From Aureicoccus marinus (GTDB taxonomy: Bacteria; Bacteroidota; Bacteroidia; Flavobacteriales; Flavobacteriaceae): DNA of 64,000 bases. This document shows positions 38,936 through 53,788 of this stretch, one piece after another. The stretch is taken from contig NZ_MQVX01000001.1 of the NCBI RefSeq assembly GCF_002954325.1, positions 1,191,107 to 1,255,106 on the forward strand, written 5' to 3'. The number at the start of each line of letters is the position of its first letter. Positions within the stretch are counted from its first letter, which is position 1. The notes below the pieces were generated by a model, which saw only the letters and a list, made by a program, of their open reading frames with translations, did not search any database and was not told the DNA's origin. Made by a program: the position numbers and the translations under genes.

Positions 38936-39397
38936 TCAGGAGTATTGCTTGGGTGGGCGCAACAAAGGAACCCGGAAAGGATCCCGGAGGGAGGAAATTT
39001 GTTGATGGTCTTTTGACACTTCTCCCAATCGGAAAAGATCGAGTGGAAAAGCCTGATGGGTTTGCAGGTGTTGATCGAGAATGATCAGGTTGATTTGATA
39101 GGCAATTTGTTGGTCTTCCGGTTTCTCCTCGTATTGATCAAAAAAGTCCTGTGCGAGATGAACCACCCGATGGGCTTTGGAAGCGGTTTGTCTTGAGTGC
39201 TGTTCCCACTCATAGTTTTGGTGATCCCCGTTATGGCTCAAAATAAGTTGCGGTGGTTGAAACTCATGGGCCAAAAAGTGACTCCAGTGCAGGAGACTCG
39301 TGCCACTTAGCGCCAAGCCATAAAGTAGGGCCAGAACCACAAGAGTTCTCTGCGAATTGGCCTTTGCCTTTTGGTATGTGGTCTTTCTTGTCTTCAC
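38936..39397 (-). CDS. Small His-rich single-helix membrane or secreted protein of unknown function
   Basis: The 153-residue protein has one N-terminal hydrophobic helix (RTLVVLALLYGLALSGTSLL) and an outside region rich in His (HWSHFLAHEF, LSHNGDHQNYEWEQHSRQ, KAHRVVHLAQ), ending RVPLLRPPKQYS. It starts 3 bases after the NRPS 1 stop codon and precedes the TonB receptor, so all three are in one transcription unit. Position and composition suggest metal binding in the periplasm, which is inference. No named family is recognised. Confidence 0.7.
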   Translation of the reverse strand: MKTRKTTYQKAKANSQRTLVVLALLYGLALSGTSLLHWSHFLAHEFQPPQLILSHNGDHQNYEWEQHSRQTASKAHRVVHLAQDFFDQYEEKPEDQQIAYQINLIILDQHLQTHQAFPLDLFRLGEVSKDHQQISSLRDPFRVPLLRPPKQYS

Positions 39398-39400
39398 CCG

Positions 39401-42400
39401 TTACGAGTTCTCTTCTTCTAATAGGGTTCGCATATGGGTTTCGAGGGCTTCCGCATAAGACTCGATGGTCGGAAACTCAAAGACCCAAGCCAAGGGGAGT
39501 TCAGTCCCTAGGTCTTCATTGAGTTGAGCAGTGACCCGAATGGCGGCCAAAGAATGCCCTCCCAGTTGAATAAAGTTGGACTCAATTCCAGGGCTTTCGA
39601 CCCGCAATACCTTTTGCCAGATCTCTTGAATCAAGGCTTGAATATCATTTTCGGGCTGTTTAGCATGGGCCTGTTCTTCTCCTTCTGTATGGTAAGCCGA
39701 AAGGAGCTCTTTACGGTCTACCTTACCACGGCTGGTCAGCGGAATTTCTTCAACCTGAATGACATCATTGGGAACCATATAGTCCGGCAGAACCTCTCTG
39801 AGTTGAGCCCAAACTTTTTCCTTATTCAGATTGGTTTTTCCGGTGTAAAAGGCAAGCAGTTTGGCATTGGATTCCTGTGCTTCGTGATCGACATACCCAA
39901 TTTCGTCCAGCATCCGCTCGACTTCGGTCACATCGATGGCTTCGTTGATTTCGTCCAGACTTTCGTCCCGATTCTTATGGCCCAGGCGGACGTCCCAGCT
40001 GTAGGGGAAAGCATAATTGCTGTAGCCTTTTTTCTTTTTGTGCACGTGTATTCCCGCCTGGTTGATCAAACAGTTAGTTGATCGACCGGTATCGGTGGGT
40101 CTTTCCCAACCGATCTCCGTTCTAAGGAACTGGAGCATTTGGGTTAAGGAGACGTGGCTGTAGCGATAAAAGTCGACGTACTCTACTTTTTCAAAAGTAC
40201 TGGCCTCACGGAACATGCTTACATCCAAACAACTCTTAACCGCATCCTCTTCCTGATGGTAGAGTTTGCGCGCTTCTAAAATGATTTTATCAATAGAGTC
40301 TGTGCTGTTTTCGGTATGCCAGAATAACTCTTCAGTCAATCGGGTTTCAAAAAATTGCCCACGAGAAAGGCCGGTAACGATAAAAGGAATGTCCTTTTCG
40401 AGCGCTATTTGGGTACTGAGGGTGTAGATAGTTTTGAAACAACCGTTGCACACATTTTGATGGCGGTGTAGGCTGTCAACAAAAATGGTGTTCATGTGCG
40501 GCGTGCTGCCGTAGACATGATCCACCCCAAGCTGCTTGACAATCTTTTGAATATTAGCTTTGGCCTGATCAGAAATGTAGCCGTTGTCTAAGGTAAAGGC
40601 CAAGACCCGAAGTCCCATCCGAACGAGTCGTGCCAAGACATAGGTACTGTCTTTTCCTCCACTGAGCAGGGCCAAACAATCGTAATGTGAAGAGCGACCT
40701 TGCTTGCTGGTTAATAAACGCACCAGGTCATCCTCTGTTTTGAAGTACTGGTCCACTTTAATTTCGTAACCTTCAAAGGCACGGCAGAGGTGACATACCC
40801 CCTCTTCATCAAAATCCGCTTCCGGATAATTGGAGGGCAAACCACAATTGCTGCAGTGTGTATCGGCTTCTTTTGCTACAACCTCCTCATTACTTTCTCC
40901 CTGATCATAAACGATCGCAACCTCATCAAGTCCTTCCTGCTTGCGAAGAGCGGATTTGATTTCGCCCAACTCTATTCTAAAGCCATTGCGTTTGATCTGC
41001 TCGTCTCTGCGGCCGAGGTAGATCAAATCTCCATCGGAGTTGACACGCGCAAAGTCTCCTGTTTTATAAAGACGCAAGCCCGGGTAATGAGCGATTTCTA
41101 CAAAGCTTTCTGCCGTGCGATCCGCTCGCTTCCAATAACCCTGAGCCAGATTAGCCCCATAGAGGTACAACTGACCTACCAATCCATGGACTACCTCCAC
41201 ACCGGCTTCATCCAATAAGAGGTAACCACCATAAGGGACCGATTCACCAATCGGAGTAGATCCTTCCCGGTGCTTTTCAGGAGAAAATTCCCCGACAATA
41301 CAGCCAACAGTCGCTTCTGTTGGGCCGTACTCATTGTAAATACGGTGCACACCGGCTTGAAACAGGCGTACGGATAATTCATTCTTGAGATCTTCTCCTC
41401 CCAGAATACAGCTTTCGATTTCTGGATTTACCCCACCTTGAGAAAGCCACAATTGAAGGTGAGCCGGGGTTAATTTTACGGTGTTGATCTCTTGGTAATT
41501 CTTTAATTCCAGCACAGCCAAATCGGGTCCGCTCCCTTTCTGTCCGATGACAACAACCTTCCCTCCTGTCGCCAAAGGAGTCAATAGACTGGTTAAGGTT
41601 AAATCAAAACCGATGGAGGTAAAAAATGGCATGCACAGGCTCTCATTTCCGGGACGGTATTTTTCGGCAGCCCATTGCACATAGTGGGACAAGGCTCCTT
41701 GATTCACGACGACCCCTTTGGGTTCACCGGTCGAACCGGAGGTGTATAAGATATAAGCCGCCTGATCTGGATTCGGGAAGGATGGGTTTCCTAAGCAAGC
41801 AGACGAGCTAAAAATTTGGTTAGAAAGAGAGAGCAAGCGGTGCGGCGTAGACCTCCAAAGGCCTGCTTCCTCTTGTTCAGCAGAACACAAAATGGCAGAC
41901 ACTTCTGCATTCTCGCCAATAAACTGCAAACGCTGTGCTCCCTGAGCCGGATCAAGCGGCACAAAGACATAGCCTTCTCGAAGACAGGTCCATACCGCAG
42001 CGACATAAGCGCTTGATCTTTCGGAACACAAGCCTACCCGATCTCCTGGCTGCAATCCTGCTCTTTTCAATTGGGAACTCAATTCTGCAAGAGCGGCATT
42101 GAACTGGGCGTAAGTGAACTGCTGATCCCCTTCAACCAAGGCGATCTGATCTGCCTGTCTCAGGAAGTGATTTACTTTTTCACCCAATACGGCAGGGACC
42201 TCCTGAACTTGTGGCATATCGCCGGCTGGCAGCGAGGAATCCTCAAGCAGAACCTCACTAAAGGCTTGCTCTACATTGTCCAAAAAGGCGTCTAAAAGTT
42301 TTAAATAATGGCGACCCACCCGGTTTCGTTGGTCTTCCTTAAAAAGGGCTTCATTCAGATCGAACCAAAGTTCTGGCTCGCCAGACTCCCCCATTTTTGT

Positions 42401-43516
42401 GTAGTGGCAGCGAATACCATGTGCGGGATCACTTTGACCAGAATGCAACCAGTTCGTTCTGACCTTCCAGTCGGTGGGGTTGTCAAAACCGGCTCCGATA
42501 AAATTGAAAATGGCCTGGTTGGAGCGGTTGGCTTCTGCTGAAGAAGAACCCGGAAGAGCGTGCTTAAAAAACTCGGCTCCTTCCGACTTGATCTGAGCAT
42601 AGAGTTCCTTAAAGCTTAGACCGCTGGCTACTTCCGTGACAAAAGGGAAAAATTCAATCCACAACCCTGGACTTTTCCTGGCTTTAAGACCGCTTCGGTG
42701 GTGCACCGGAATCCCCAGCTGTACCTTTTCTGACTGGGTAATGCGACTTAAAAAAGCAACATACACGGTCAAAAGAATAGTAAAGACACCCAAATCCTCA
42801 CTAAAGGAAGAAAAAGTGGGCTCTTTTAAAAGGGTTTTGAGTTTAATCAGACGCTCTTTTCCGATCGCATACCTCAATTGTTGGGATTCCAGGGTATTCT
42901 TGGATAATTCCCCATAAAAACGCTGTGGAATATGCGCTGCACTTTGCTGAACCCAATATTGGGTGTCGAGGGAAGCAAGGGATTCATGCCCGTATTCCGT
43001 CAAGCTTTGTTCAAAAGGAATCAAATCCAAAGAAGGGAATACACCAGACTCTTGAAATCCGAAATAAAGCGTCCAAAGAGCCTTCCAGATAAAGGTCGAC
43101 GAAGTCGCATCCTCCACCGAATGGTGCATATTGAGGTAAAAAACATAGTGTTCTTCCCCCAAAACATAGACACAGGCATCAAAAACAGTCTCTTCGATTG
43201 GCAAAGGCTGGGTCTTTCTATGATCGACCAAGGCTTTCCACTCGTTTGGTGCACATTCAACCCAGTCCAGACCCCGGGTTGGCTCTGGTCGTACCTCCTG
43301 ATACGGATGATTCTCTTGAATTCCGAAAACCAAACGAAAAACACTAAGCTGTCGCTGCAATTCCGCGAAACTCCGGTCAAAGAGTTCCCGATCCAGGCTG
43401 TTCTCCAACTCAAAGGTGTTGACCACATTGAGCACACAGGCTTCTGGGTACAACTGATGAGCCAGCCACATCTGGGTCTGGGTTGCCGTTAGTTGATATC
43501 GTTTGTTTTCGTTCAA
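39401..43516 (-). CDS. Nonribosomal peptide synthetase C-A-T with a PP-loop ATP pyrophosphatase inserted in the A domain
   Basis: The 1371-residue single module has a condensation domain (1-430; HHSVEDA at 131-137) and an adenylation core (450-870; YTSGSTGEPKG 591-601). The A domain's C-terminal part resumes at 1216 with TSRGKVDRKEL (catalytic Lys1265), and a carrier domain follows with LGGHSL (Ser1322). Between motif A8 (RNGFRIELGEIKSA) and the resumption lie about 335 extra residues (40879-39872): a zinc ribbon CSNC(888-891)/CHLC(908-911), the PP-loop LLSGGKDSTYV (SGGKDS 952-957) and CNGC(1023-1026). It resembles N-acetyl-sugar amidotransferases (WbpG type). The pocket residues read D-L-T-K-I-G-E-V-G-K, close to the established Asn code DLTKLGEVGK. 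It lies 6 bases after the carrier-protein gene. Confidence 0.95.
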   Translation of the reverse strand: MNENKRYQLTATQTQMWLAHQLYPEACVLNVVNTFELENSLDRELFDRSFAELQRQLSVFRLVFGIQENHPYQEVRPEPTRGLDWVECAPNEWKALVDHRKTQPLPIEETVFDACVYVLGEEHYVFYLNMHHSVEDATSSTFIWKALWTLYFGFQESGVFPSLDLIPFEQSLTEYGHESLASLDTQYWVQQSAAHIPQRFYGELSKNTLESQQLRYAIGKERLIKLKTLLKEPTFSSFSEDLGVFTILLTVYVAFLSRITQSEKVQLGIPVHHRSGLKARKSPGLWIEFFPFVTEVASGLSFKELYAQIKSEGAEFFKHALPGSSSAEANRSNQAIFNFIGAGFDNPTDWKVRTNWLHSGQSDPAHGIRCHYTKMGESGEPELWFDLNEALFKEDQRNRVGRHYLKLLDAFLDNVEQAFSEVLLEDSSLPAGDMPQVQEVPAVLGEKVNHFLRQADQIALVEGDQQFTYAQFNAALAELSSQLKRAGLQPGDRVGLCSERSSAYVAAVWTCLREGYVFVPLDPAQGAQRLQFIGENAEVSAILCSAEQEEAGLWRSTPHRLLSLSNQIFSSSACLGNPSFPNPDQAAYILYTSGSTGEPKGVVVNQGALSHYVQWAAEKYRPGNESLCMPFFTSIGFDLTLTSLLTPLATGGKVVVIGQKGSGPDLAVLELKNYQEINTVKLTPAHLQLWLSQGGVNPEIESCILGGEDLKNELSVRLFQAGVHRIYNEYGPTEATVGCIVGEFSPEKHREGSTPIGESVPYGGYLLLDEAGVEVVHGLVGQLYLYGANLAQGYWKRADRTAESFVEIAHYPGLRLYKTGDFARVNSDGDLIYLGRRDEQIKRNGFRIELGEIKSALRKQEGLDEVAIVYDQGESNEEVVAKEADTHCSNCGLPSNYPEADFDEEGVCHLCRAFEGYEIKVDQYFKTEDDLVRLLTSKQGRSSHYDCLALLSGGKDSTYVLARLVRMGLRVLAFTLDNGYISDQAKANIQKIVKQLGVDHVYGSTPHMNTIFVDSLHRHQNVCNGCFKTIYTLSTQIALEKDIPFIVTGLSRGQFFETRLTEELFWHTENSTDSIDKIILEARKLYHQEEDAVKSCLDVSMFREASTFEKVEYVDFYRYSHVSLTQMLQFLRTEIGWERPTDTGRSTNCLINQAGIHVHKKKKGYSNYAFPYSWDVRLGHKNRDESLDEINEAIDVTEVERMLDEIGYVDHEAQESNAKLLAFYTGKTNLNKEKVWAQLREVLPDYMVPNDVIQVEEIPLTSRGKVDRKELLSAYHTEGEEQAHAKQPENDIQALIQEIWQKVLRVESPGIESNFIQLGGHSLAAIRVTAQLNEDLGTELPLAWVFEFPTIESYAEALETHMRTLLEEENS

Positions 43517-43522
43517 GCTCTT

Positions 43523-43759
43523 CTATTTCTTGCTGTTGACGTACTTCTCTATGGTCTCTACACTCATAAAGTTCTCCATGGTCAGGTCCTCAGTGGGCAC
43601 CTTGATGCCATAGTTGTTTTCAATAAAACCGACCAGGCGCATCATGCCCAGGGAATCGAGTAATCCACTTCCCAGTAGATCTTCGTCCGTTTCTAAGGTG
43701 CCGAAATCCGGATCGTTAATCAGATCCTCGGTGATATAGCGGCTGAGTTCTTCAATCAT
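43523..43759 (-). CDS. Stand-alone acyl/peptidyl carrier protein
   Basis: The 78-residue carrier protein starts at the ATG at 43759; the frame continues upstream but only as antisense of the adenylation gene. The phosphopantetheine serine is in LLGSGLLDSLGMMRLVGFIE. Length and acidic helices are typical of discrete carriers that hold an aminoacyl group for oxidation. Its start overlaps the stop of the stand-alone adenylation gene (ATGA) and its stop lies 6 bases before NRPS 1, so it should be made in step with both. It is the likely substrate carrier for the acyl-CoA dehydrogenase. Confidence 0.93.
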   Translation of the reverse strand: MIEELSRYITEDLINDPDFGTLETDEDLLGSGLLDSLGMMRLVGFIENNYGIKVPTEDLTMENFMSVETIEKYVNSKK

Positions 43760-45363
43760 GACTCTTGTTTGTGTACGTTTAGTTGTTCTATCCAATCTTT
43801 GAGTTGTCCTCGTATAATTTTTCCGGAACTGGTTCTCGGAAAGCTCTCCAATTCGACTAGGCGATCCGGAAAGGCGTAAGACGGCAATCGTCTTCTGCAC
43901 TGCTCAATGAGCTCTTCTTCTTTAAATTCTTCTTCCCGCCGACGTTGGTAGGTCAGGACAATGATTCTATTTTCTCCTTCCAGGGTACTGAAACAAGCGG
44001 CGTCCTGCACTCCATCTAACTCCAAAGCCGCACTTTCAATTTCGGCCAAATCAATTCGGTAGCCCCGCTTTTTTATCTGGGCATCAATTCGGCCCTTAAA
44101 AACCAATTGACCATGGGCATTGAAGTACACCAAGTCTCCGGTTTTGTAGTATTGTTTGCGAATCCCTGAAGGGCTGTTGGCTTCAAAAAAGGGAGAAAGA
44201 TTTCGGCTTTCTTGTCTCCAATAGCCTTGCATGGCTGTTTCGGCATGTATACAGAGCTCCCCTTCCTGCACTCCCTCGGTCTTCCCCGTATCCGGATCCA
44301 GAAGCAAGAAATCAGCATCGGCCCAAACCTGGCCTAAAGGAATGGGCTCCTCCCCTTGAGGCGGTTCTGAGAAATTAAAATAGGTGCATTGGTTGACCTC
44401 TGCAGGCCCGTAAACGTTCGAGAAGGTCGAGTTGGGCCAGAGCTCCATCAATCGACGCACATATTTGGGCGCGAAGGGCTCACCCCCGTAGAGCACCCAT
44501 TTCATAGGCACTTGACTCAGGCTTTCTTCAATGCCAGGCTGTAAGAGTTGAATCAAGGCCAAGGGAACCGCATACCAAAAGGTAATCTGATCCCTCACCA
44601 GGACTTGGGCTAAACTCGCCGGCATCTTGGTTTCGCCTTCCGAGAGCACCACCGTGTGTACCCCACAAAAAGGAGCGGTGAAATAGGCGAAGGTGCAAAT
44701 ATCAAAATGCAAAGGGGCATGACTGGCATACCGATCTTCAGGCCCCGGACGGTAGAGTCGGGCCGATCGTTCGGCATAGGCCAAACCACTTCGGTGGGTA
44801 TGCATAATCCCTTTGGGTTGGCCAGTAGAGCCAGAGGTATACATGATATAAGCCAGCTGGCTGGCGCTGAATTTTAATACCGGCGCGTCGGTCTCGGTGG
44901 CCATCAGTTCATCCCAGGACAGGCAGGAAGTGTGGTTCTTTTGTTCACTCAGTTTTTCGGGTCCTATCCCTATTAATTTGATCGCAAATGGCAAGACTCT
45001 ATCGAGAGACCTCAACTTGCGAAATTGGGCAGGTGTTGTCAATACGATACGGATATTGGCATCTTCAATAATCTGGGCCATTCGCTCCACCGAACTGGTT
45101 GGATCAAGAGGCACAAAAGCACCACCGGCTCGAAGTATTCCGTAAACCGAAACAAAGCTTTCGAGAGAACGCTCTGCTAGAATACCGATGCGATTTTCTT
45201 TTTGGACTCCCTCGGCGAGCAGAGTGGCTGCCAACTGTCCGGATTGCTTCTCAAGTTCGGTATAGGTCAATCGCTTCTCCCCCATGGAATAGGCGGTATG
45301 GTCAGGAAAGCGCTTGGCTCCCTGCTCCACAATTTCACCCAAATGGAGAAGCGTCGAATTCAT
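43756..45363 (-). CDS. Stand-alone amino-acid adenylation enzyme, probably proline-activating (PltF/CloN4-like context)
   Basis: The 535-residue enzyme activates an amino acid as its adenylate and loads the discrete carrier protein. Motifs are YIMYTSGSTGQPKGIMHTH, HAPLHFDICTFAYF, FSNVYGPAEVNQCTYF, YKTGDLVYFNAHGQL and, at the end, FPRTSSGKIIRGQL with the catalytic Lys. The pocket reads roughly D-I-F-Y-V-Y-V-Q-C-K, which does not match a code I know with certainty. Proline is inferred from the neighbours: a carrier, an acyl-CoA dehydrogenase and a cyclodeaminase-like enzyme that could make proline. The start overlaps the dehydrogenase stop (TAATG). Confidence 0.85.
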   Translation of the reverse strand: MNSTLLHLGEIVEQGAKRFPDHTAYSMGEKRLTYTELEKQSGQLAATLLAEGVQKENRIGILAERSLESFVSVYGILRAGGAFVPLDPTSSVERMAQIIEDANIRIVLTTPAQFRKLRSLDRVLPFAIKLIGIGPEKLSEQKNHTSCLSWDELMATETDAPVLKFSASQLAYIMYTSGSTGQPKGIMHTHRSGLAYAERSARLYRPGPEDRYASHAPLHFDICTFAYFTAPFCGVHTVVLSEGETKMPASLAQVLVRDQITFWYAVPLALIQLLQPGIEESLSQVPMKWVLYGGEPFAPKYVRRLMELWPNSTFSNVYGPAEVNQCTYFNFSEPPQGEEPIPLGQVWADADFLLLDPDTGKTEGVQEGELCIHAETAMQGYWRQESRNLSPFFEANSPSGIRKQYYKTGDLVYFNAHGQLVFKGRIDAQIKKRGYRIDLAEIESAALELDGVQDAACFSTLEGENRIIVLTYQRRREEEFKEEELIEQCRRRLPSYAFPDRLVELESFPRTSSGKIIRGQLKDWIEQLNVHKQES

Positions 45364-46514
45364 TACAGGCCGAGAAGTTTAGAAATAATATTGCGCTGGA
45401 TATCGGAAGTACCGGCATAAATAACTCCACCTACAGCATCACGCAGATTGCGCTCCACTTCAAATTCACTGATGTATCCGGGAGCACCGTGGTTACGAAT
45501 GGCGTCCAGACTGGATTCGATAAAGCTTTCACTCATGTAGAGCTTGAGTAAGGCTGACTCCATCATGGAGGTTTCGCCCTTGTTTTTCATCCAGGCCACT
45601 TTGTAAAGCAAGAGTTTTGAAAGCTCCAGCCTTAGCTTCATATCGGCAACGCGATTAGAAACCGACTGAAATTTTCCGATGGCTTGTCCATACTGCTTTC
45701 GCTTGCGCACATAAGCCACCGTCTCTTCTAACTGATACTGCATGGTACCCAGCTGTCCGGCTAAAATGGTACAGCGGTCGTGCTCCAAAGAGCTGTTGGT
45801 AATGGACCATCCGGCTCCTTCCGGACCTAGGCGGTTTTCTTCAGGCACAAAACAGTCTTCAAAAAACAAATCGCCAAAGGGTACCGTACGTAGGCCCATC
45901 TTCGGACGGTTCTCGCCCTGGGTAAATCCCTTCATTCCCTTTTCAACCATAAAGGCGGTAATCCCCCAGGCGCCTTTGTTTGGATCGGTAGTGGCAAAAA
46001 CCAAAATGACATCGCCCACCGGGCCAAAAGTAATGTAGTGTTTATGTCCATTGAGAAGGTAACCCCCGTCGACCTTGGTCGCGGTGGTCTTCATGCTGTA
46101 GACGTCGGATCCGGCATCGGGCTCCGACAAGGCGTGACAGCCCATCCATTCCCCCGCCGCCATACGAGGCAGGTATTTTTTCTTCTGCTCCTCCGTACCA
46201 AATAAAACGATGGGGTATTCCACCGTCCAGAGTTGGGCATTGATTCCAAAGGCCAAACCGTTATCGCGACAGGCGTATCCCAGACCTTCCATGGCCAGAC
46301 AAGCCGTGATCAGGTCAATTTCGTCTCCTGTTCCCCCGTATTCTTTGGGGATGGCTAGGCCTTGCAAACCGAATTCGGCGCATTTCATCCAAGCCTCTTT
46401 CGAAAAAACGCTATTCAAATCGGCTTCCAGATAAGACTCGGGGAAGGCCTCCTTGGCGAAAGCGATAACCTTTTCTTTATAGGCCAGCTGTTCTTGACTA
46501 AAACTGTAATCCAT
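45363..46514 (-). CDS. Acyl-CoA dehydrogenase-like flavoenzyme, probably acting on a carrier-bound aminoacyl group
   Basis: The 383-residue protein has the full acyl-CoA dehydrogenase fold (LAIPKEYGGTGDEIDL, MGCHALSEPDAGSDV with the FAD site, KHYITFGPVGDVILVFA, RKRKQYGQAIGKFQSV, VIYAGTSDIQRNIISKLL). In pyrrole pathways PltE/RedW-type members oxidise carrier-bound proline. At the two usual positions of the catalytic Glu I see Ala in YAGTSDIQ and, in the isovaleryl-CoA dehydrogenase position, SLEHDR, where Asp aligns to the base and Glu is two residues earlier. So either a shifted base is used or the substrate differs. It lies between the cyclodeaminase-like and adenylation genes and overlaps the latter. 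Confidence 0.9.
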   Translation of the reverse strand: MDYSFSQEQLAYKEKVIAFAKEAFPESYLEADLNSVFSKEAWMKCAEFGLQGLAIPKEYGGTGDEIDLITACLAMEGLGYACRDNGLAFGINAQLWTVEYPIVLFGTEEQKKKYLPRMAAGEWMGCHALSEPDAGSDVYSMKTTATKVDGGYLLNGHKHYITFGPVGDVILVFATTDPNKGAWGITAFMVEKGMKGFTQGENRPKMGLRTVPFGDLFFEDCFVPEENRLGPEGAGWSITNSSLEHDRCTILAGQLGTMQYQLEETVAYVRKRKQYGQAIGKFQSVSNRVADMKLRLELSKLLLYKVAWMKNKGETSMMESALLKLYMSESFIESSLDAIRNHGAPGYISEFEVERNLRDAVGGVIYAGTSDIQRNIISKLLGL

Positions 46515-46532
46515 TGTATCGTGTTTCAGGGG

Positions 46533-47603
46533 TTAGACCTGAACGGGTTTGCTTATAAAATGATAGGGATTCTTGACATCGGAAGACACATTCTCCAGGT
46601 GAATGCCCTGTCCTACGCCTAAAGCGCGTCCGAGTTCTTCCATGAGGTTGGCCACAATTTGATCTTCATAGGCCCATCCCGTTGAGTCGAAAACACTCAT
46701 CCCTTTTTGGATGGTTTTCCAGGTGATGGGTTGCGAGATCAACTGCTTTAAATCAGGACCAATTTCAGTATCCTGAAGCTGCTGACACTCCCCTTCTATT
46801 TTTGCTTGTTCTCTAAAGTCCGGTACGACCGTGGACTCCAGGAGTAAGTTTCGAGGCAATTCCAACTTCCCCGGAAAATCAGACCCTACGGCATTGATAT
46901 GCAAATGAGGCTGGCAATTGTAGTGTTCAAATAGCGGGCCTTCATTGACACCGATGGAGGTGGCGGTACAGAGAATATCGACCGTATCGACAATGGTTTC
47001 TATATCACTGCGAATGAGATTCACATCCAATTCCAGACCCTCTATTCGGTCCTGGAAGTTATCCATCGCCTTGGGGTCGATATCGTAGATCCAAATACTT
47101 TTAAGTGGAAAGAGACGGCTCAGGGCGTGCAATTGAACCACGGCTTGAGCCCCACATCCGATCAACCCAAGCTTTTCACTACCGGGTTTAGCCATCGCAC
47201 GGGAAGCCACAGCAGAGGCCGCAGCGGTGCGCAAAGCAGTGGGCAGAACCCCATCCATGATGGTTTTAAGGTGTCCTGTCTTGGTATCGTAAGTCGTGAT
47301 ATTCGATAAGATCGTCGGAAGATCAAAGAGGTCCGGATTATGGGGATGGTAGCCCACGACCTTGAGGACGACTTCCTTTCCTTTTTCGTGAACTGGCATA
47401 AACTCCACAAGCCCCTCGGGAGCAGCCTGGTAATTAAAACCGGTACGGATTGGAATTTCCAGAGAACTCGAATCAAAGTTCTCTAGCCCCCTAGTCAAGC
47501 GTTCTATGAGCAGATCTATAAACCGATTGGGACCCGTTTGAATGAGTATTTCTTCCAGATCTGATGCGGTAAGCAACCAGGTCTTGGTGGAGTATTTCTT
47601 CAT
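46533..47603 (-). CDS. Ornithine cyclodeaminase/mu-crystallin family protein
   Basis: The 356-residue NAD(P)-dependent enzyme belongs to the family including ornithine cyclodeaminase (ornithine to proline), SbnB and related dehydrogenases. Visible parts are the N-terminal IRTGFNYQAAPEGLVEFMP with substrate Arg, GYHPHNPDLFDLPT, ALRTAAASAVASRAMA and the Rossmann loop KLGLIGCGAQAVVQLHALS. Ornithine cyclodeaminase is the preferred role because the next three genes form a proline-oxidation-type cassette. SbnB-type synthesis of diaminopropionate would need SbnA, which is absent here. It is the first gene of the minus-strand operon, 18 bases before the dehydrogenase. Confidence 0.88.
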   Translation of the reverse strand: MKKYSTKTWLLTASDLEEILIQTGPNRFIDLLIERLTRGLENFDSSSLEIPIRTGFNYQAAPEGLVEFMPVHEKGKEVVLKVVGYHPHNPDLFDLPTILSNITTYDTKTGHLKTIMDGVLPTALRTAAASAVASRAMAKPGSEKLGLIGCGAQAVVQLHALSRLFPLKSIWIYDIDPKAMDNFQDRIEGLELDVNLIRSDIETIVDTVDILCTATSIGVNEGPLFEHYNCQPHLHINAVGSDFPGKLELPRNLLLESTVVPDFREQAKIEGECQQLQDTEIGPDLKQLISQPITWKTIQKGMSVFDSTGWAYEDQIVANLMEELGRALGVGQGIHLENVSSDVKNPYHFISKPVQV

Positions 47604-47714
47604 CTGATAAGCGGCAATTTTGTCTTAAGATACATTTTCTCTTTCAAGAGTTGCGTTTAACGAGAAAAATCTCGACGAAGGAAGAGAAAGATGGGGTATA
47701 ATTCCAAAATGCCT

Positions 47715-47744
47715 GTAATCACTGGGATTACGCTTAATCGTAAT
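47715..47744. promoter_or_regulatory. Overlapping inverted repeats in the divergent NRPS promoter region
   Basis: GTAATC-ACTGG-GATTAC (47715-47731) and ATTACG-CTTAAT-CGTAAT (47727-47744) are exact inverted repeats that share bases, roughly in the middle of the 229-base gap between the divergent cyclodeaminase-like gene and the hupE-like gene. Such paired palindromes suggest a dimeric regulator site that could co-ordinate both operons. No full TAnnTTTG box was found in this gap. Confidence 0.45.
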
Positions 47745-47832
47745 TTTCTGCACTAGAGTCGATTAATCCCGTTTAGTTAAACAGCTTTCTGTAATTTACC
47801 CCCTGTTTGACCGATCAGACTAAAAAATTGCT

Positions 47833-49092
47833 ATGAAAACACAGATAAAAAGAGCGCTTTTTGTGCTGGCTTTTTTGGCCGTACAAATCATCAACGCCCA
47901 CATTCCCAACCAGAGTTATGTCTACCTCCGCATTTACGAAAAGGATGGTATTGAAGGTCGTTACGAGATCAATATTCGCGAGATCAACAAGCTGCTCGAC
48001 TTAGACTTAGATACCCGTTCATCTTTGGACGAGCTGAGACCTTATATTCCACAGCTTCAAGCTTATATGTTGCAAAACACTTCCTTTAGTTCAGCAGTTG
48101 GAGATCACCAGATCAAGTTTAAGGAGTCCGATATGTTTTACCTGGGAACAGGGAACTACCTGCTGATGAAGTTTGATTTGACCAACACCAAAGAACTGCC
48201 AGATGATATGGATATGAGTTATTCCGCCCTCTTTGACAAGGACCCCACGCACAAAGGATTTTTGATTATCGAATACAACTGGAAAGCCGGTATTATAAAC
48301 AACGAAGCCAATATCCTTCTTGATTTTGGACCCGGGGATCTCAGCGGGGAGTTCAGCCTGACCGAAGTATCGCTTTGGAAAGGTTTTTGGGCGATGGTCA
48401 AACAAGGGGTTTGGCACATCTGGATTGGTCTGGACCACATCCTCTTTTTATTGGCTCTGATTTTACCAGCGGTCGTGAGACGCTCTCGAGAAGAAACCGA
48501 AACCGCCGTTCCTCTTCCCACATGGATGAAAGGGAACGCCGTTATCGATTGGATTGGTGTTCCTCAATTCGGGAATGCCTTTTGGTACATCCTGAAAGTG
48601 GTAACCTTTTTTACCATTGCACACACCATTACCCTTACCCTAGCCACCTTAGAATGGGTCAATTTAAATGCTCAGATTGTTGAATCCATCATCGCCTTTT
48701 CCATTGGGTTGGCGGCCTTTCATAACATCCGTCCCATCTTTAAAGGGCGCGACTGGGTGATTGCCTTTGTTTTTGGACTTTTCCACGGCTTTGGTTTTGC
48801 CAGTGTACTCAGTGACCTGGGGCTTACCGGAGAATTTCTGAGTCTTTCGTTACTCGGTTTCAACATTGGGGTGGAATTAGGACAGATCGTAATCATCGCC
48901 TTGTTCTTCCCCGTACTCTTTTTACTCCGACAGAAAAAATACTACTCCAAGATTTTGGTGTATGGGTCGATAACGCTCATGGTCATCTCACTCTATTGGG
49001 TGATTGAAAGGGTTTTTGATGTGAATTTAGGAGTGGAAGACTTCCTCAAATCCATTATTATCTCGATCTTGAAAGGGATTGGACTGAGATAA
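47833..49092 (+). CDS. HupE/UreJ-type membrane transporter with periplasmic N-terminal domain
   Basis: The 419-residue protein has a signal peptide (ALFVLAFLAVQIINAH), a beta-rich extracytoplasmic domain of about 170 residues and then six membrane helices of the HupE/UreJ-2 family. The helices carry HIWIGLDHILFLLALILPAV, FTIAHTITLTLATL, FSIGLAAFHNIRP and FGLFHGFGFASVL, whose His/Asp residues are the family's likely metal site. Members are predicted Ni/Co or related metal permeases, but no hydrogenase or urease is in the window. It is 22 bases upstream of NRPS 2 on the same strand, so it is part of the peptide locus. Confidence 0.9.
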   Translation: MKTQIKRALFVLAFLAVQIINAHIPNQSYVYLRIYEKDGIEGRYEINIREINKLLDLDLDTRSSLDELRPYIPQLQAYMLQNTSFSSAVGDHQIKFKESDMFYLGTGNYLLMKFDLTNTKELPDDMDMSYSALFDKDPTHKGFLIIEYNWKAGIINNEANILLDFGPGDLSGEFSLTEVSLWKGFWAMVKQGVWHIWIGLDHILFLLALILPAVVRRSREETETAVPLPTWMKGNAVIDWIGVPQFGNAFWYILKVVTFFTIAHTITLTLATLEWVNLNAQIVESIIAFSIGLAAFHNIRPIFKGRDWVIAFVFGLFHGFGFASVLSDLGLTGEFLSLSLLGFNIGVELGQIVIIALFFPVLFLLRQKKYYSKILVYGSITLMVISLYWVIERVFDVNLGVEDFLKSIIISILKGIGLR

Positions 49093-49114
49093 CCCCCAAT
49101 CCGCCTCAAAAAGT

Positions 49115-52100
49115 ATGTCTCGCGACTCCAATGATTTGTTGGGCCGGTTTAAGAACCGGTCCATAAATACGGGTGCCAACCTGAGCAAGGCCCCTGAAGG
49201 GATGCCTGTACCTCTGACCGCCGGCCAAAAAAGGCTGTGGTTCTACCAACAGGCGCATCCCAAATCCGCTGCATACAACTACGGCATTCGCTATTTTGGA
49301 GAAGGTAAATTCAATCTGGAACGCTTTCGACAGGCCTGGGAAGCCCTCGCTGTAGAATACACTATCCTGCGAAGCTATTACCCCCTGGTCAACAACAAGC
49401 CTGAGATCAAAATAACAGACGAGATTCCTCCTCTGGTCTATAAAGATCTAACGCAGGAGGCAACCCCAGAGGAAGTAGCGAAAAAAGAGGAATACGCTCT
49501 TTTACACCATAATTACGAGCTCGGTCAAGCGCATCTATGCTCTTTCCTCGTCCTAAAGACAGGACCTGAAAAATACCGCTTCACTTTTGCGACCCACCAC
49601 ATCTTGGTAGACGAATGGTCTGTAGGGGGCATCATTCAAAACTTGGCAGACTACTACGCTAATGGTTTTAAGGCAGAGCGAGAAATCATTGATTTTAGAG
49701 ATGTCGCCTGGAGTTTTCATCAAAAAGACGAAAGTCGACACCTGCCCTATTGGACAGACTATATCCGAGGTGCTCAAGCCGGGAGTGGTTTGGTACCGGA
49801 TTTTCAGAGGGGGTCGAGTCCAACCGGAACGGGTGCTCGATGGGCTTTCTCCCTACCAACCAGCCTTTCTAAACAAAGTAAAAAGCAAGCCCAAGAACTG
49901 GGTCTGACCCTTTTTGAATGGTGTTTTGGTCTTTTTGGGTTACACCTGCACCAACTGGGCGGGAACAGCGATTTCATCGTTGCCAGTCCAGCGACCTTAC
50001 GCCAGGACCTGGCCTTACAAAAACACTGGGGTTATTTAATCGAGACGGTCCTTTACCGCTTCCGATTCGATCAAAACAAGACCCTGAAAGAGTTGCTCTC
50101 TGAGCTCAGTGCAGACCACCGAAAGGCACAAGGCAAGCTGCCCTTGCCCCTTGAAAACCTCGTCAGCGAACAGCAGGCATCACGGGACCTCAGTCGGAAT
50201 CCCCTCTTTGAGACCATGTTCGTTTTTAACGAATCCCAGGAAACTCCTTCCTCGGGGAAGATTTTGTCTGGTCTGCGGAAGAGTCATCTGCCTTGGAAAC
50301 GGCAAAATTTGATCTGACTCTTTTTAGCCGTTGGGAAAACGAGCAACTGCATTTTAGTTGGGAGTATAACCCTGCGCTCTTTTCAGTGGACAGTATACAG
50401 CTCATGGCACAAGGTTTTCTGCAACTTTTTAAATCGGTTGCCGAGAAAGGGGTTGAACAATGGGCTCACAGCTACGGAAAGGAACAAGTTGAAAACGCTG
50501 AAACGCCATGGAAAAATCTCTGGAGCGGTATCAACAGTATCCCGGAACGCTTTAAGCAGATGGTGGAGCAGTACCCGGAAAAAACCGCTTTGAGTTTTGG
50601 CGCCGAACAGTGGACCTATAAAACCCTGGATCAAAAGAGTACCGCGTGGGCTCTGGCCTTGCTAAAGCTGAATCCGCAACAAAAACCTATTGCCCTGCAC
50701 CTGGACCGTTCCCTTGAACAAATAGCCGCCCTTATGGCTGTGCTCAAAAGTGGTGTTCCGTACCTTGCATTGGACCCGGAATATCCTGGGGGTCGTTTGA
50801 GCTATATGCTCGAAAACAGCGAATGCGCTTTGGTTATCAGTTCCGACAAAAGCAACTTCACAGATACCGGAGCTAGGGTCATTGAGCTGAAAGAGCTGGA
50901 TGTGGTTTCAACAGAAGAGATGCCCAAGAGCTTACCGCCGATCACGGGCGAACAAGCCGCTTATATCATATACACTTCAGGGAGTAGTGGTAAACCAAAA
51001 GGGGTGGTGATCAGTCACTCCAACCTACTCTACTCTACAGCAGCCCGACTCGCGTTCTACCCGGACCAGCCTGGTGTTTTTTATTGGACCTCTTCGCTTT
51101 CTTTTGACAGTTCCAAAGCCGGTTTGTACTGGACCCTTTTACAAGGAGGTCATTTGCGCATCGCTCCAACACGAAGCGAGCAAGACATGGAGCAGATGGC
51201 AAAAGAAATTGAATCCCATCAGGTCACCCATTTATTGACCTTACCAAGCTTGTACAAAAAGCTTCTGCAATTGGCACCCAAAAACACCTTGTCTTCGCTC
51301 ACAACGACGATGGTCGCCGGAGAAAGCTGCGAGCTGGAGGTTATCGAAATCCATCACGACCGACTCAAGAACTGCAAGCTCTACAACGAATACGGCCCCA
51401 GTGAAGGAACCGTTTGGGCCACGGCAAAAGAATTGCATCCTAAACAAGACGGAGGACGTGTTTCGATCGGAAAAGCCATTCCCGGAACCCAGGTTTATGT
51501 ACTGGATCGCTACGGTCAATTGGCTTCTCCACTTCAAATTGGCGAGCTTTGTATTTCGGGACCCGGGCTGGCGGAAGGCTACCTGCATGCTCCTGAATTA
51601 ACGGCCGAAAAATTCATTCCGAATCCCTGGGGAAAAGACGACTTTAAAAAGCTCTACAAGACCGGAGACCAAGCGCGATGGAACACCAAAGGAGAGCTTG
51701 AATTTTTTGGTCGAAAAGACCAACAACTAAAAATCCGTGGGCAACGCGTGGAGCTTGAAGAAATCCAATCCATACTGTCCAACCTCAAAGGAATCAGTGA
51801 AGCCTGCGTAGTCATTCATCAATCGAGCAATACCCCCTTGCTGGTCGCCTATTTTACCAGCGACTCGAAAGACTTAGAAGTAAACATCAGAGAAAAGCTG
51901 CAGAATCAGTTGCCAGCGCATATGGTGCCGAAACACCTGCTTCAGCTCGAGAAGTTTCCTCTACTGCCCAATGGGAAGGTGGACCGTCAAAGCCTGCGTG
52001 GCCGACCCCTGCAGATCCAAACAACAGAAGGCACTCTTCCCGAGACCGAAATACAAAAACAATTGGCTGTACTTTTTGAAGAAGTAAGTACGAAAAGACC

Positions 52101-53055
52101 GGTTTATGTGGAAGACGACTACTTTGATCTCGGTGGTGATTCCATAAAAAGTATAGAATTGATTGCCAAGGCGCGCAGCTTAGGAATGAACATCACCCCC
52201 AATATCCTCTTTAAATACCCGACCATCCAAGGTCTGAGTCATTACCTGGAAGCTGAACAAGAAGAGGCCTGGGACTATCTAGTCAAATTCCACGACCAAG
52301 GCACCAAGCGCCCCCTTTTTTGTATTCACGCTGGTGGAGGCCATGTATTCTTCTACAAAGAACTTCACAAATTCATCAAAAACAGACCGGTTTACGCTCT
52401 ACAGCCGTCAGGAGCTTATGAGGATCAAGAGCTGCAACCCACGATCAATGCCATGGCCCTTGACTATATAAAGAGTATGAAAAAGGTTCAGGCTCAGGGA
52501 CCTTATACCATTTTGGTGTATTGCTTTAGTGCCGTAGTCGGGAATGAAATATGCCGTCTTCTTCGAGAAGAAAGTCAGCAGATCGATGTCATTGTGGTCG
52601 ATACCATGACCTCACCTGCGAATTTGAATAGTCCCAAAAGACTAAAAATGAGGATGCAGGCCTTTGGCTCTCGTCTTCTCCGCTCTCCAAAGCGAACATT
52701 GTATTACTGGACCATTGCACGTTATTCCTTACTCCGAATGCGCTATCAGGAAAAAGCAGCCAAGGATGAGGAAGCTCGAAAACTGGAACGTCTTCGAAGA
52801 CACCTCATGCAACTCAGTCAGGGGCACCCCTTTTCCGAAATGGAAGAAGATATCTACCTCCTCTTGACCAAGAAGGATCACCGTGCCGTCAACCGAGAAA
52901 CGGTGGCTTCCTGGCAAAGAACGACCTCCGGAAAGGTCCGGGTGTTGCGCGTGCCTGGAGAACACATGACCCTTTTTGATGATGGTTTTTTGGAGACCAC
53001 CTCGGAAGCCATTCAGGAAAGTTTGAACCAGATAGAAAACGCCACCGAGGCCTAA
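49115..53055 (+). CDS. Nonribosomal peptide synthetase C-A-T-TE, interrupted by one frameshift
   Basis: Rejoining the two frames gives about 1313 residues. The condensation domain carries ATHHILVDEWSVGG (49115 to about 50400). The adenylation domain follows to about 51990, with YIIYTSGSSGKPKGVV, FDSSKAGLYW, NEYGPSEGTVW, YKTGDQARW and LLPNGKVDRQSL. A carrier is next with FDLGGDSIKS (Ser codon 52141), then a type I thioesterase (FCIHAGGGHVFFYKEL, Ser codon 52528 in YCFSAVVG, His in PGEHMTLFDDG). The pocket reads D-S-A-T-M-A-E-V-W-K, not a code I can assign. The frame breaks at GGGG 50254-50257; one more G joins SSG to EDFVWSAEESSALETAKFD. This is the releasing module. Confidence 0.92.
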
Positions 53056-53059
53056 GGCG

Positions 53060-53788
53060 ATGGAAACAGGTCTTCATAAACAAGCGGTACAGCTTTGCAT
53101 CTTTGAATACGCCCATCTGCTTAAACAATTAGAGGATTTGGGCCATCTTTTGACTCCCGACGAGGAGGAACGCGCTCTGCGCTTTAAAACGGAAAGGCTT
53201 CAGAATGAATTTCGAGCTGGCCGGGGCCAACTGAGGCGATTGCTCGGAGAGGTCCTTGATCGAGATCCCAAGAGCTTCACCTTTGAATACGGGGAACTGC
53301 GCAAGCCCTTTTTGCGTGATCACAACCTTCATTTTAATGTCAGTCATTCCAAAGAATTCTGGGGGGTGGCTTGGTCGAAAAAAGCTCCCTTGGGTTTAGA
53401 TATTGAATTCAAGAATCCTGATCTGAATTACCCCAAATTGGCAGAAACTTTTTGTTGTGCAACGGAGTTGACCTACCTAAAAAAGGCCGAAGGTTCCGAA
53501 CAAAAAGAACGCTTTTTTCAGCTGTGGTCAGCCAAGGAATCCCTGATCAAAAAAGATGGCCGAGGCCTGAGTATGCCGGTAAAACTCGTGGAATTATCAC
53601 CATTGAGTAATGCACAAACCGGAAATCTTCGAGTGAATACTTTGGGAGAGACGGGTCTAGATCACCCTGAAGAACTCCAGATTAAGGCCTTTGACTTTCA
53701 TCCGGAATACAGCCTTGCCCTCTGTACAGAAGGGACCTTTCATACCGAAATTTACTTCAATAAATCGCCCAACATCCGCCCTCTATAA
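53060..53788 (+). CDS. Sfp-type 4'-phosphopantetheinyl transferase
   Basis: The 242-residue protein attaches phosphopantetheine to carrier-protein serines. Core motifs are present: HFNVSHSKEFWGVAWS, LGLDIEFKNPDLNYP (Mg Asp and Glu) and FFQLWSAKESLIKKDGRGL (catalytic W-x-x-K-E). It is 4 bases after the NRPS 2 stop, so it is co-expressed with its probable substrates: the carrier domains of both synthetases and the discrete carrier protein. Its 3' end overlaps the convergent glycosyltransferase gene by 37 bases. Confidence 0.95.
   Translation: METGLHKQAVQLCIFEYAHLLKQLEDLGHLLTPDEEERALRFKTERLQNEFRAGRGQLRRLLGEVLDRDPKSFTFEYGELRKPFLRDHNLHFNVSHSKEFWGVAWSKKAPLGLDIEFKNPDLNYPKLAETFCCATELTYLKKAEGSEQKERFFQLWSAKESLIKKDGRGLSMPVKLVELSPLSNAQTGNLRVNTLGETGLDHPEELQIKAFDFHPEYSLALCTEGTFHTEIYFNKSPNIRPL

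What the first reader, a model, noticed from the sequence alone, without database searches (positions are those of the whole stretch)
38936..53788. Undescribed divergent NRPS locus: oxidised-proline starter, Asn module, terminal module with thioesterase
Gene order and tight overlaps (TAATG, ATGA, gaps of 3-22 bases) tie a cyclodeaminase-like enzyme, acyl-CoA dehydrogenase, stand-alone A and carrier protein to NRPS 1, and NRPS 2 to a phosphopantetheinyl transferase. This predicts a short product: pyrrole- or dehydroproline-carbonyl, then Asn (possibly modified), then one unknown residue. Pyrrole plus amidine recalls the netropsin/anthelvencin style of molecule, reached by a different route; that comparison is speculation.
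Basis: partly seen in the sequence, partly recalled or inferred. Interest (0 to 1): 0.82.

Follow-up and report, generated by a model that had tools for sequence, protein, structure and literature searches.

The report
Copper-carrier peptide gene cluster (predicted)
A marine flavobacterium carries genes that look set to build a tiny three-part peptide ending in histidine, made to grab a scarce metal (most likely copper), together with the gates that bring the metal back into the cell; relatives of this cluster turn up in many bacterial phyla, and their product is not known from the papers searched.

Summary
The gene block is real, but its key features were missed. The "Asn module" is an Asn-type adenylation domain interrupted by an ATP-pyrophosphatase domain of the AMDH kind, known from albicidin and cystobactamid synthetases, where it turns carrier-bound Asn into beta-cyanoalanine or isoasparagine. 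The last module's code is histidine-like. NRPS 2 is split by a frameshift in this assembly. A HupE/UreJ-2 membrane protein lies inside the block; a TonB receptor and a small His-rich protein lie beside it. In 15 of 15 relatives of the same family all these travel together; the oxidised-proline genes occur in only 5 of 15. In other phyla HupE accompanies the AMDH module in 36 of 41 full-flank loci, against 0 of 20 control adenylation loci. HupE's outer domain folds like a solved copper-bound domain and would begin with histidine in 36 of 36 sequences. Best reading: a metallophore system, probably for copper, making starter-Asn*-His, a chelator with histidine third, re-imported by TonB receptor and HupE. 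AMDH also carries an invariant CxxC...C triad like Fe-S sulfur insertases, which could explain the reported brown colour of CysH. Product, metal and chemistry are predictions.

The parts
46533..47603 (-). ornithine cyclodeaminase/mu-crystallin family enzyme (proline or pyrroline supply for the starter)
   Evidence: Pfam OCD_Mu_crystall 5.6e-57; NCBIfam best PRK07589 185.9 bits, below cut-off 350
45363..46514 (-). acyl-CoA dehydrogenase of the prolyl-carrier-protein type
   Evidence: PigA 384 of 500 bits, RedW-type prolyl-PCP dehydrogenase 350 of 650 bits: best families, below both cut-offs
43756..45363 (-). stand-alone starter adenylation enzyme, proline-type code
   Evidence: Pfam AMP-binding 1.4e-76; code DIFYLGV- by alignment, last two letters QC read by eye
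43523..43759 (-). starter carrier protein
   Evidence: Pfam PP-binding 9.5e-6; start chosen at the ATG overlapping the stop of the A gene
39401..43516 (-). NRPS 1: C - A(Asn) with inserted AMDH domain - PCP
39899..40858 (-). AMDH / adenine-nucleotide-alpha-hydrolase domain inserted in the A domain (residues 887-1206 of NRPS 1)
   Evidence: TIGR03573 125.7 bits, cut-off 203.2; 53.3% identical to the insert of a stand-alone NRPS of X. albilineans; AF2 model pLDDT 88.8, VIA Z 20.1 to 8wex
38936..39397 (-). small His-rich protein, between NRPS 1 and the TonB receptor in relatives too
   Evidence: 16-row alignment A4, 11-19% identity, H110 and PP invariant; HMM hit in 15 of 15 relatives
36610..38844 (-).
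   Evidence: Pfam plug and barrel; next to NRPS 1 at 60-64% identity in 15 of 15 relatives
47833..49092 (+). HupE/UreJ-2 membrane protein with an outer Ang-1-like domain whose mature N terminus would be His23
   Evidence: Pfam HupE_UreJ_2 4.5e-47; His23 in 36 of 36; VIA Z 11.5 to 9gce, Cu-bound Ang-1 domain
49115..50317 (+). NRPS 2, first ORF: most of the C domain
   Evidence: Pfam Condensation 4.5e-45
50293..53055 (+). NRPS 2, second ORF: end of C - A(His-like) - PCP - TE; frame change between about 50233 and 50293
53060..53788 (+). 4'-phosphopantetheinyl transferase
   Evidence: Pfam ACPS 1.8e-15
53752..55071 (-). UDP-glycosyltransferase-like protein, possible tailoring enzyme
   Evidence: Pfam EryCIII-like_C/UDPGT; a glycosyltransferase family with the same Pfam matches recurs in 12 of 40 diverse AMDH loci
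47604..47832 (.). divergent promoter region; holds a perfect inverted repeat GTAATC-N5-GATTAC
   Evidence: the repeat was in none of the 40 other HupE upstream regions scanned

Best explanation
A metallophore system: biosynthesis, receptor and inner-membrane transporter in one locus. A proline-type unit is loaded on the stand-alone carrier protein and oxidised by the dehydrogenase. NRPS 1 couples it to Asn while its inserted AMDH domain, an ATP-pyrophosphatase thought to adenylate the amide, converts Asn to beta-cyanoalanine (or isoasparagine). NRPS 2 adds histidine and the thioesterase releases starter-Asn*-His; a glycosyltransferase may add a sugar. With histidine at position 3, the ring nitrogen of the starter, two backbone amides and the imidazole can hold Cu(II) or Ni(II) as in the ATCUN motif (recalled). 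The loaded chelate re-enters through the TonB receptor; the metal is taken over by HupE, whose outer domain starts with histidine. Shown: genes, order, codes, conservation, fold matches. Inferred: product, metal (copper most likely), order of steps.
For: Conserved unit: HupE, TonB receptor, small protein, Asn code and His-like code in 15 of 15 relatives, same divergent layout. HupE in 36 of 41 genome contigs AMDH loci with at least 9.5 kb on both sides against 0 of 20 adenylation loci away from AMDH in the same family; rows with HupE carry 11 phylum labels. Codes: interrupted module Asn-type in 77 of 77 scored of 80 genome-contig loci; His-like code in 44 of 48 loci with a further scored module. 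Natural variants: three family genomes keep the cluster without the insert; the middle code is Asn (G132) or Ser (G044, and G162 by eye), and the next module is still His-like in 3 of 3, so His at position 3 is kept while the middle varies. Receptor kept after loss: G001 and G110 keep the receptor beside an NRPS 1 remnant. HupE outer domain: Z 11.5, rmsd 4.3, 142 aligned to Cu-bound 9gce, model residue 24 on chain residue 2. AMDH: identity to the known kind, its chemistry from PMC7966384.
Against: No metal or product was measured. HupE proteins are usually tied to nickel or cobalt (PMC4284471), and the zinc proteins ZrgA and PA4063 match the outer domain at Z 9.2 and 8.6. The sequence profile of HupE finds no PDB relative. 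HupE is missing in 5 of 41 full-flank loci and this TonB receptor in 19 of 41; no TonB receptor is annotated near the Roseovarius cluster. No shared operator was found. The starter's proline genes are in 5 of 15 relatives only, so the N-terminal ligand varies. Window NRPS 2 is frameshifted, so this copy may be broken or mis-assembled. Codes predict substrates, they do not prove them. A pyrrole nitrogen would be a poor ligand; the ATCUN idea needs a pyrroline, proline or other basic nitrogen.
Confidence: 0.6

Rival explanations
1. Thioamide metallophore: the insert is a CtaC-like Fe-S thioamide synthetase that puts sulfur on a carrier-bound amide, giving an N,S copper chelate like a nonribosomal methanobactin.
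For: Invariant CxxC...C (C154, C157, C280 of the fragment) in 54 of 54 inserts; absent as a set from most of 25 WbuX amidotransferases; CtaC depends on C154, C157, C284 (PMC6772006); profile match to [4Fe-4S] LarE 8cnz with CNGC on CYNC; structural matches to NcsA, LarE and TtuA.
Against: The same three cysteines are in the X. albilineans and Myxococcales inserts (L116 and L119 are rows of A3), whose published counterparts make a nitrile or isoasparagine, not a thioamide (PMC7966384). The code is Asn throughout, as in AMDH.
Confidence: 0.12
2. Secreted antibiotic or signalling tripeptide; TonB receptor and HupE are self-uptake, export or bystander genes.
For: AMDH is known from two antibiotic pathways (PMC7966384); a glycosyltransferase lies nearby.
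Against: Cystobactamids are built of p-aminobenzoates (PMC7966384; albicidin likewise, recalled); the window's codes are proline-, Asn- and His-like. HupE accompanies the module in 36 of 41 loci but in 0 of 20 controls.
Confidence: 0.13
3. Same kind of metallophore, but for nickel, cobalt or zinc rather than copper (a sub-case of the best explanation).
For: HupE/UreJ literature on nickel and cobalt (PMC4284471); zinc proteins ZrgA and PA4063 match the HupE outer domain; ATCUN sites also bind Ni(II) (recalled).
Against: Best fold match is the copper-bound HupE/UreJ-2 domain 9gce with the N-terminal residue in register; mature N-terminal His in 36 of 36; cydA, of a copper-free oxidase (recalled), beside the receptor in 3 loci (L069, L171, L172).
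Confidence: 0.3
4. Pyrrole-amidine minor-groove binder in the netropsin/anthelvencin style.
For: A pyrrole starter is possible; AANH enzymes such as NASAT are implicated in amidine formation (PMC10607449).
Against: One oxidised-proline starter at most, no repeated pyrrole units, and the conserved part is His plus transport genes.
Confidence: 0.02

Closest known systems
AMDH domain of CysH (cystobactamid) and AlbIV (albicidin), PMC7966384
   Same: domain of about 340 residues inserted in an Asn-specific A domain; SGGKD motif; 51.5-53.3% identity to the inserts of L119 and L116
   Different: CysH and AlbIV are stand-alone modules serving p-aminobenzoate synthetases; here the module is a C-A-PCP elongation module after a proline-type starter and before His, with HupE and TonB receptor
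CtaC thioamide synthetase of closthioamide, PMC6772006
   Same: AANH superfamily, carrier-bound substrate, CxxC...C triad with nearly the same spacing (157 to 284 there, 157 to 280 here)
   Different: CtaC is free-standing and inserts sulfur; there is no evidence of sulfur chemistry here
N-acetyl sugar amidotransferase LpNASAT (8wex), PMC10607449
   Same: near whole-length fold match (Z 20.1, 304 aligned) and the N-terminal tetracysteine, zinc-bound in LpNASAT
   Different: the CxxC...C triad is missing as a set from most family members examined; acts on sugars
Ang-1 domain of a HupE/UreJ-2 protein with Cu (PDB 9gce)
   Same: outer domain of HupE, Z 11.5, N-terminal register
   Different: 8% identity; no paper on it was read, so any tie to an NRPS is unknown to me
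Methanobactin chalkophore systems (PMC3621798, search listing and start of abstract only)
   Same: small copper chelator with a dedicated uptake receptor (partly recalled)
   Different: methanobactin is ribosomal; this is a predicted NRPS tripeptide with His
Bleomycin metal-binding part (recalled, no call)
   Same: Asn-derived unit followed by His, metal-bound, glycosylated
   Different: not tested here; far larger assembly

Membership tests
AMDH domain (PMC7966384) | inserted inside an A domain | tested here: met
   WbuX-type stretch 887-1206 lies between A core 453-870 and A tail 1220-1265; uninterrupted relatives align across the gap
AMDH domain (PMC7966384) | A domain specific for L-Asn by code | tested here: met
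   DLTKIGEVGK in the window; 77 of 77 scored genome-contig loci Asn-type; code positions recalled
AMDH domain (PMC7966384) | SGGKD ATP-binding motif | tested here: met
   SGGKDS invariant in 54 of 54
AMDH domain (PMC7966384) | sequence homology to the AlbIV/CysH insert | tested here: met
   53.3% to L116, an X. albilineans stand-alone A-insert-PCP frame; L116 and L119 are 67.3% alike, the paper gives 69% for AlbIV/CysH. That L116 is AlbIV is inferred from species and build
AMDH domain (PMC7966384) | converts Asn to beta-cyanoalanine or isoasparagine | not testable with these tools
   needs an enzyme assay
[4Fe-4S] AANH sulfur insertases (CtaC, TtuA, LarE) | CxxC...C triad plus PP-loop | tested here: met
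[4Fe-4S] AANH sulfur insertases (CtaC, TtuA, LarE) | binds a [4Fe-4S] cluster and inserts sulfur | not testable with these tools
   CysH protein was reported dark brown (PMC7966384)
WbuX / N-acetyl sugar amidotransferase TIGR03573 | curated score cut-off 203.2 bits | tested here: not met
   125.7 bits
Prolyl-PCP dehydrogenase (PigA, RedW) | curated cut-offs 500 and 650 bits | tested here: not met
   384 and 350 bits, the best two families
Chalkophore/metallophore system | biosynthesis genes with cognate outer- and inner-membrane uptake genes | tested here: met
   gene content in 15 of 15 relatives; control 0 of 20; that the genes take up this product is inferred
Chalkophore/metallophore system | product binds the metal and restores growth at low metal | not testable with these tools
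   no chemistry available
HupE/UreJ-2 (PF13795) | Pfam gathering score 24.5 bits | tested here: met
   160.1 bits
Netropsin/anthelvencin-type pathway | pyrrole-amide oligomerisation with amidine end groups | not tested
   no such sequences were compared

The most novel reading that the evidence does not exclude
A widespread, so far unnamed class of nonribosomal copper carriers of the form starter-Asn*-His, found in about a dozen phyla, in which an Fe-S type AMDH domain built into the Asn module makes the middle residue; albicidin and cystobactamid would have borrowed this domain from metal-scavenging clusters.
Probability: 0.35. Interest if true: 0.86.

Novelty: new variant of a known kind. 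Interest (0 to 1): 0.72.

Why it matters
How bacteria collect scarce copper across the outer membrane is poorly characterised (PMC12914433, abstract). A conserved receptor-transporter-synthetase unit would give a large, directly testable family of metal carriers, including in named strains of Zobellia, Maribacter, Robiginitalea, Neolewinella and cyanobacteria. It also offers a concrete proposal for the open mechanism and brown colour of AMDH domains: a three-cysteine Fe-S site.

Tried and rejected
Shared operator in the divergent promoter: 41 regions including the window were scanned for inverted repeats; the window's GTAATC-N5-GATTAC was in no other region, and no repeat was in more than 3. 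Rejected as evidence.

Thioamide as the leading chemistry: I held it until PMC12283262 and PMC7966384 showed that inserts of this kind are tied to beta-cyanoalanine or isoasparagine; kept as a rival.

Receptor identity by sequence: P0013 finds no PDB chain at E 1e-5 or 10. The HupE profile finds only weak PDB hits that look like chance. The small protein P0001 has no Pfam or NCBIfam match and was not folded. In fold listings cut at 50 rows, families that do not appear were not counted as absent.

The first genome-contig scan with the whole NRPS 1 found nothing; the alignment of inserts found 387 relatives, of which 80 were kept. No title or abstract start that they listed joins AMDH or an AANH-interrupted A domain with HupE, TonB or a metallophore; the library lacks most subscription papers, so this is no proof of absence. 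Two reviews (PMC11355689, PMC8949500, passages only) name methyltransferase, oxidase, monooxygenase and reductase inserts in A domains; the passages shown name no AANH insert.

Counts and choices: the 97 loci include the same strains twice, so I quote the 80 genome-contig loci or the 15 relatives. Three of 80 interrupted modules could not be scored for the code. A3 is 54 rows: the window and 53 of the 80 loci, chosen by me, close kin left out. In one search I compared 25 of the WbuX matches with 14 inserts. The 20 controls were chosen by me from the list; two are shorter than 20 kb (L203, L204). Of 13 receptor loci fetched, those of G158, G066 (8.8 kb only) and the six of lower identity show no HupE and no NRPS hit in the stretch.

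Domain tree: HupE presence needs 14 changes, shuffled mean 18.0; many rows without HupE are on short contigs. The nesting of L116/L119 inside HupE-rich branches has weak support (80/84).
Full report
What is there. The block at 38936-53788 is real and consists of two divergent operons (translations). Plus strand: HupE/UreJ-2 protein, NRPS 2, PPTase, with a convergent glycosyltransferase after it. NRPS 2 is split by a frame change between about 50233 and 50293.

The inserted domain. NRPS 1 is C-A-PCP, but residues 887-1206, between the core and the tail of the A domain, match the N-acetyl sugar amidotransferase model TIGR03573 at 125.7 bits, below its cut-off of 203.2. The A code is DLTKIGEVGK, an Asn code (positions of the code recalled). 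PMC12283262 (passages) states that this code is also used for beta-cyanoalanine in albicidin, whose A domain has a 342-residue insertion probably of the adenosine nucleotide alpha-hydrolase superfamily. PMC7966384 (abstract, passages and one part of the text) names the domain AMDH, shows that it dehydrates carrier-bound Asn to beta-cyanoalanine or makes isoasparagine, reports many homologues all in Asn A domains with no known product, reports a dark brown protein, and leaves the mechanism open. The X. albilineans locus L116 holds a stand-alone frame of this build, 53.3% identical to the window insert; L119 is 67.3% identical to L116. So the insert is an AMDH domain by homology; that L116 is AlbIV is inferred.

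A clue to AMDH's mechanism. In 54 inserts from many phyla C19, C22, C42, SGGKDS, C154, C157 and C280 are invariant, C39 nearly so (fragment numbering, residue 1 = P0002 residue 870). The first four cysteines are shared with 25 WbuX proteins (24 or 25 of 25 at each); the last three are not (C157 in 5 of 25, C280 in 6 of 25, C154 not among the two commonest letters). CtaC, a [4Fe-4S] thioamide synthetase of the same superfamily working on carrier-bound substrate, loses activity when C154, C157 or C284 is changed (PMC6772006, parts 1 and 2 of 3 read); LarE of T. maritima uses a CXXC-C motif for its cluster (PMC9283937, passages); the profile aligns CNGC with CYNC of LarE 8cnz. The AF2 model (pLDDT 88.8) matches NASAT 8wex best (Z 20.1), then nitrile synthetase ArtA (11.8), an NAD synthetase (11.7), NcsA (11.6), LarE and TtuA, tied within 1. 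The authors of PMC7966384 looked for CxxCxxxC and found none; CxxC...C is a different pattern. An Fe-S site is therefore a testable proposal; whether it serves nitrile formation is unknown.

The conserved unit. The insert occurs in 16 of 199 genomes of the window's family, own genome included, each from a different genus, each in a frame of 1373-1417 residues. In the 15 relatives, 15 have HupE, TonB receptor, small protein, Asn code and His-like code; 12 have a starter A, 5 have the dehydrogenase and cyclodeaminase (layout). By tree the window sits with Robiginitalea inside Flavobacteriaceae (99/90).

Beyond the family. A scan with the insert alignment gave 80 kept loci. Of 41 with at least 9.5 kb on both sides, 36 have HupE, 22 the TonB receptor, 40 a C domain; of the 39 shorter ones 18 have HupE. 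The interrupted code is Asn-type in 77 of 77 scored. Of 48 loci with a further scored module, 44 have DS(A/V)L(I/M/V)AEVWK; the four without are L100, L102, the X. albilineans locus L116 and the Myxococcales locus L119. DSALIAEVWK is listed among His codes and can accept beta-hydroxy-His (PMC12283262). A Roseovarius plasmid carries A, methyltransferase, dehydrogenase, PCP, HupE and one fused NRPS. As control, 20 loci around adenylation domains away from AMDH in the same family had HupE in 0, the insert in 0 and this TonB in 0. A glycosyltransferase family recurs in 12 of 40 diverse loci, and five family members have a guanidinoacetate-methyltransferase-like protein next to the His module's A core; the PDB match was made for one of the five, the others align to it at 62-67%.

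Natural variants. Three family genomes have the same cluster with an uninterrupted middle module of about 1040 residues: Asn code in G132, Ser code DVWHFSLVDK in G044 and, by eye, in G162; the next module is His-like in all three. G001 and G110 keep the receptor next to an NRPS 1 remnant, as expected of strains that use the carrier but stopped making it. The receptor family itself is in 79 of 199 genomes.

Transporter. HupE homologues from AMDH loci have His23 in 36 of 36, directly behind a signal-peptidase-like site with A at -1 in 26 and A at -3 in 23. The AF2 model (pLDDT 88.0) matches, in its outer domain, 9gce, the Ang-1 domain of a HupE/UreJ-2 protein with Cu bound, at Z 11.5, rmsd 4.3, 142 aligned, model 24-182 on chain 2-166; zinc proteins ZrgA and PA4063 follow at 9.2 and 8.6. 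Foldseek ranks ZrgA first (E 9.4e-4) and 9gce second (1.3e-3). Sequence identity to 9gce is 8%, and no sequence-level PDB match exists. cydA, of a copper-free oxidase (recalled), lies near the receptor in three loci. Literature on HupE speaks of nickel and cobalt (PMC4284471, passages).

Model. Starter-Asn*-His places His third, the ATCUN arrangement for Cu(II) and Ni(II) (recalled). What is kept when the insert, the middle residue and the starter change is His third plus HupE plus receptor. This is why I read the locus as a metallophore system, most likely for copper. If there is no CysJ-like hydroxylase, PMC7966384 would predict mainly the beta-cyanoalanine form; none is among the window proteins I scanned around the block, and I did not search the rest of the genome.

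What is not settled. Metal, product, oxidation state of the starter, the fate of the nitrile, the role of the small protein, and whether this copy of NRPS 2 works.

Noticed in passing
50233-50293: Frame change inside the condensation domain of NRPS 2; assembly error or real break cannot be told from one genome.
   Followed up: partly
L168 12349-15450, L169 11966-15100, L171 6293-9418: Clusters of the same layout whose middle A domain lacks the AMDH insert, with Asn or Ser codes: a natural comparison with and without the domain.
   Followed up: partly
L167 12326-12655 and L170 9651-9881: NRPS 1 C-terminal remnants beside an intact receptor: looks like loss of production with the receptor kept.
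   Followed up: partly
L171 12385-14710, L172 7219-9542, L069 15511-16803: Cytochrome bd oxidase-like genes near the TonB receptor in three genomes (named by eye and recall; cydA matched by tblastn).
   Followed up: partly
L020 17541-18323, L026 15551-16339, L024 1099-1887, L042 18456-19238, L032 4308-5096: A guanidinoacetate N-methyltransferase-like protein encoded between the A core and the downstream PCP gene of the His module, so that module's A domain seems split over two genes.
   Followed up: partly
L015 14953-17133 (Streptomyces sp. NBC_01216 plasmid): A divergent insert-like domain (41% identity) near an asparagine synthase gene, with all three triad cysteines kept in alignment A1.
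   Followed up: no
L090, L095, L096 (Microvirga), L099 (Gemmatimonadetes): AMDH modules with no HupE or C domain seen, next to a dehydrogenase (three of four upstream or downstream), thioesterase and PPTase hits: a second, different AMDH cluster type.
   Followed up: no
L155 10622-13897 (own genome): Another HupE-like gene near what looks like a CobW-type GTPase, possibly a separate metal system.
   Followed up: no
47715-47744: Two overlapping perfect inverted repeats in the divergent promoter, not shared with relatives.
   Followed up: partly
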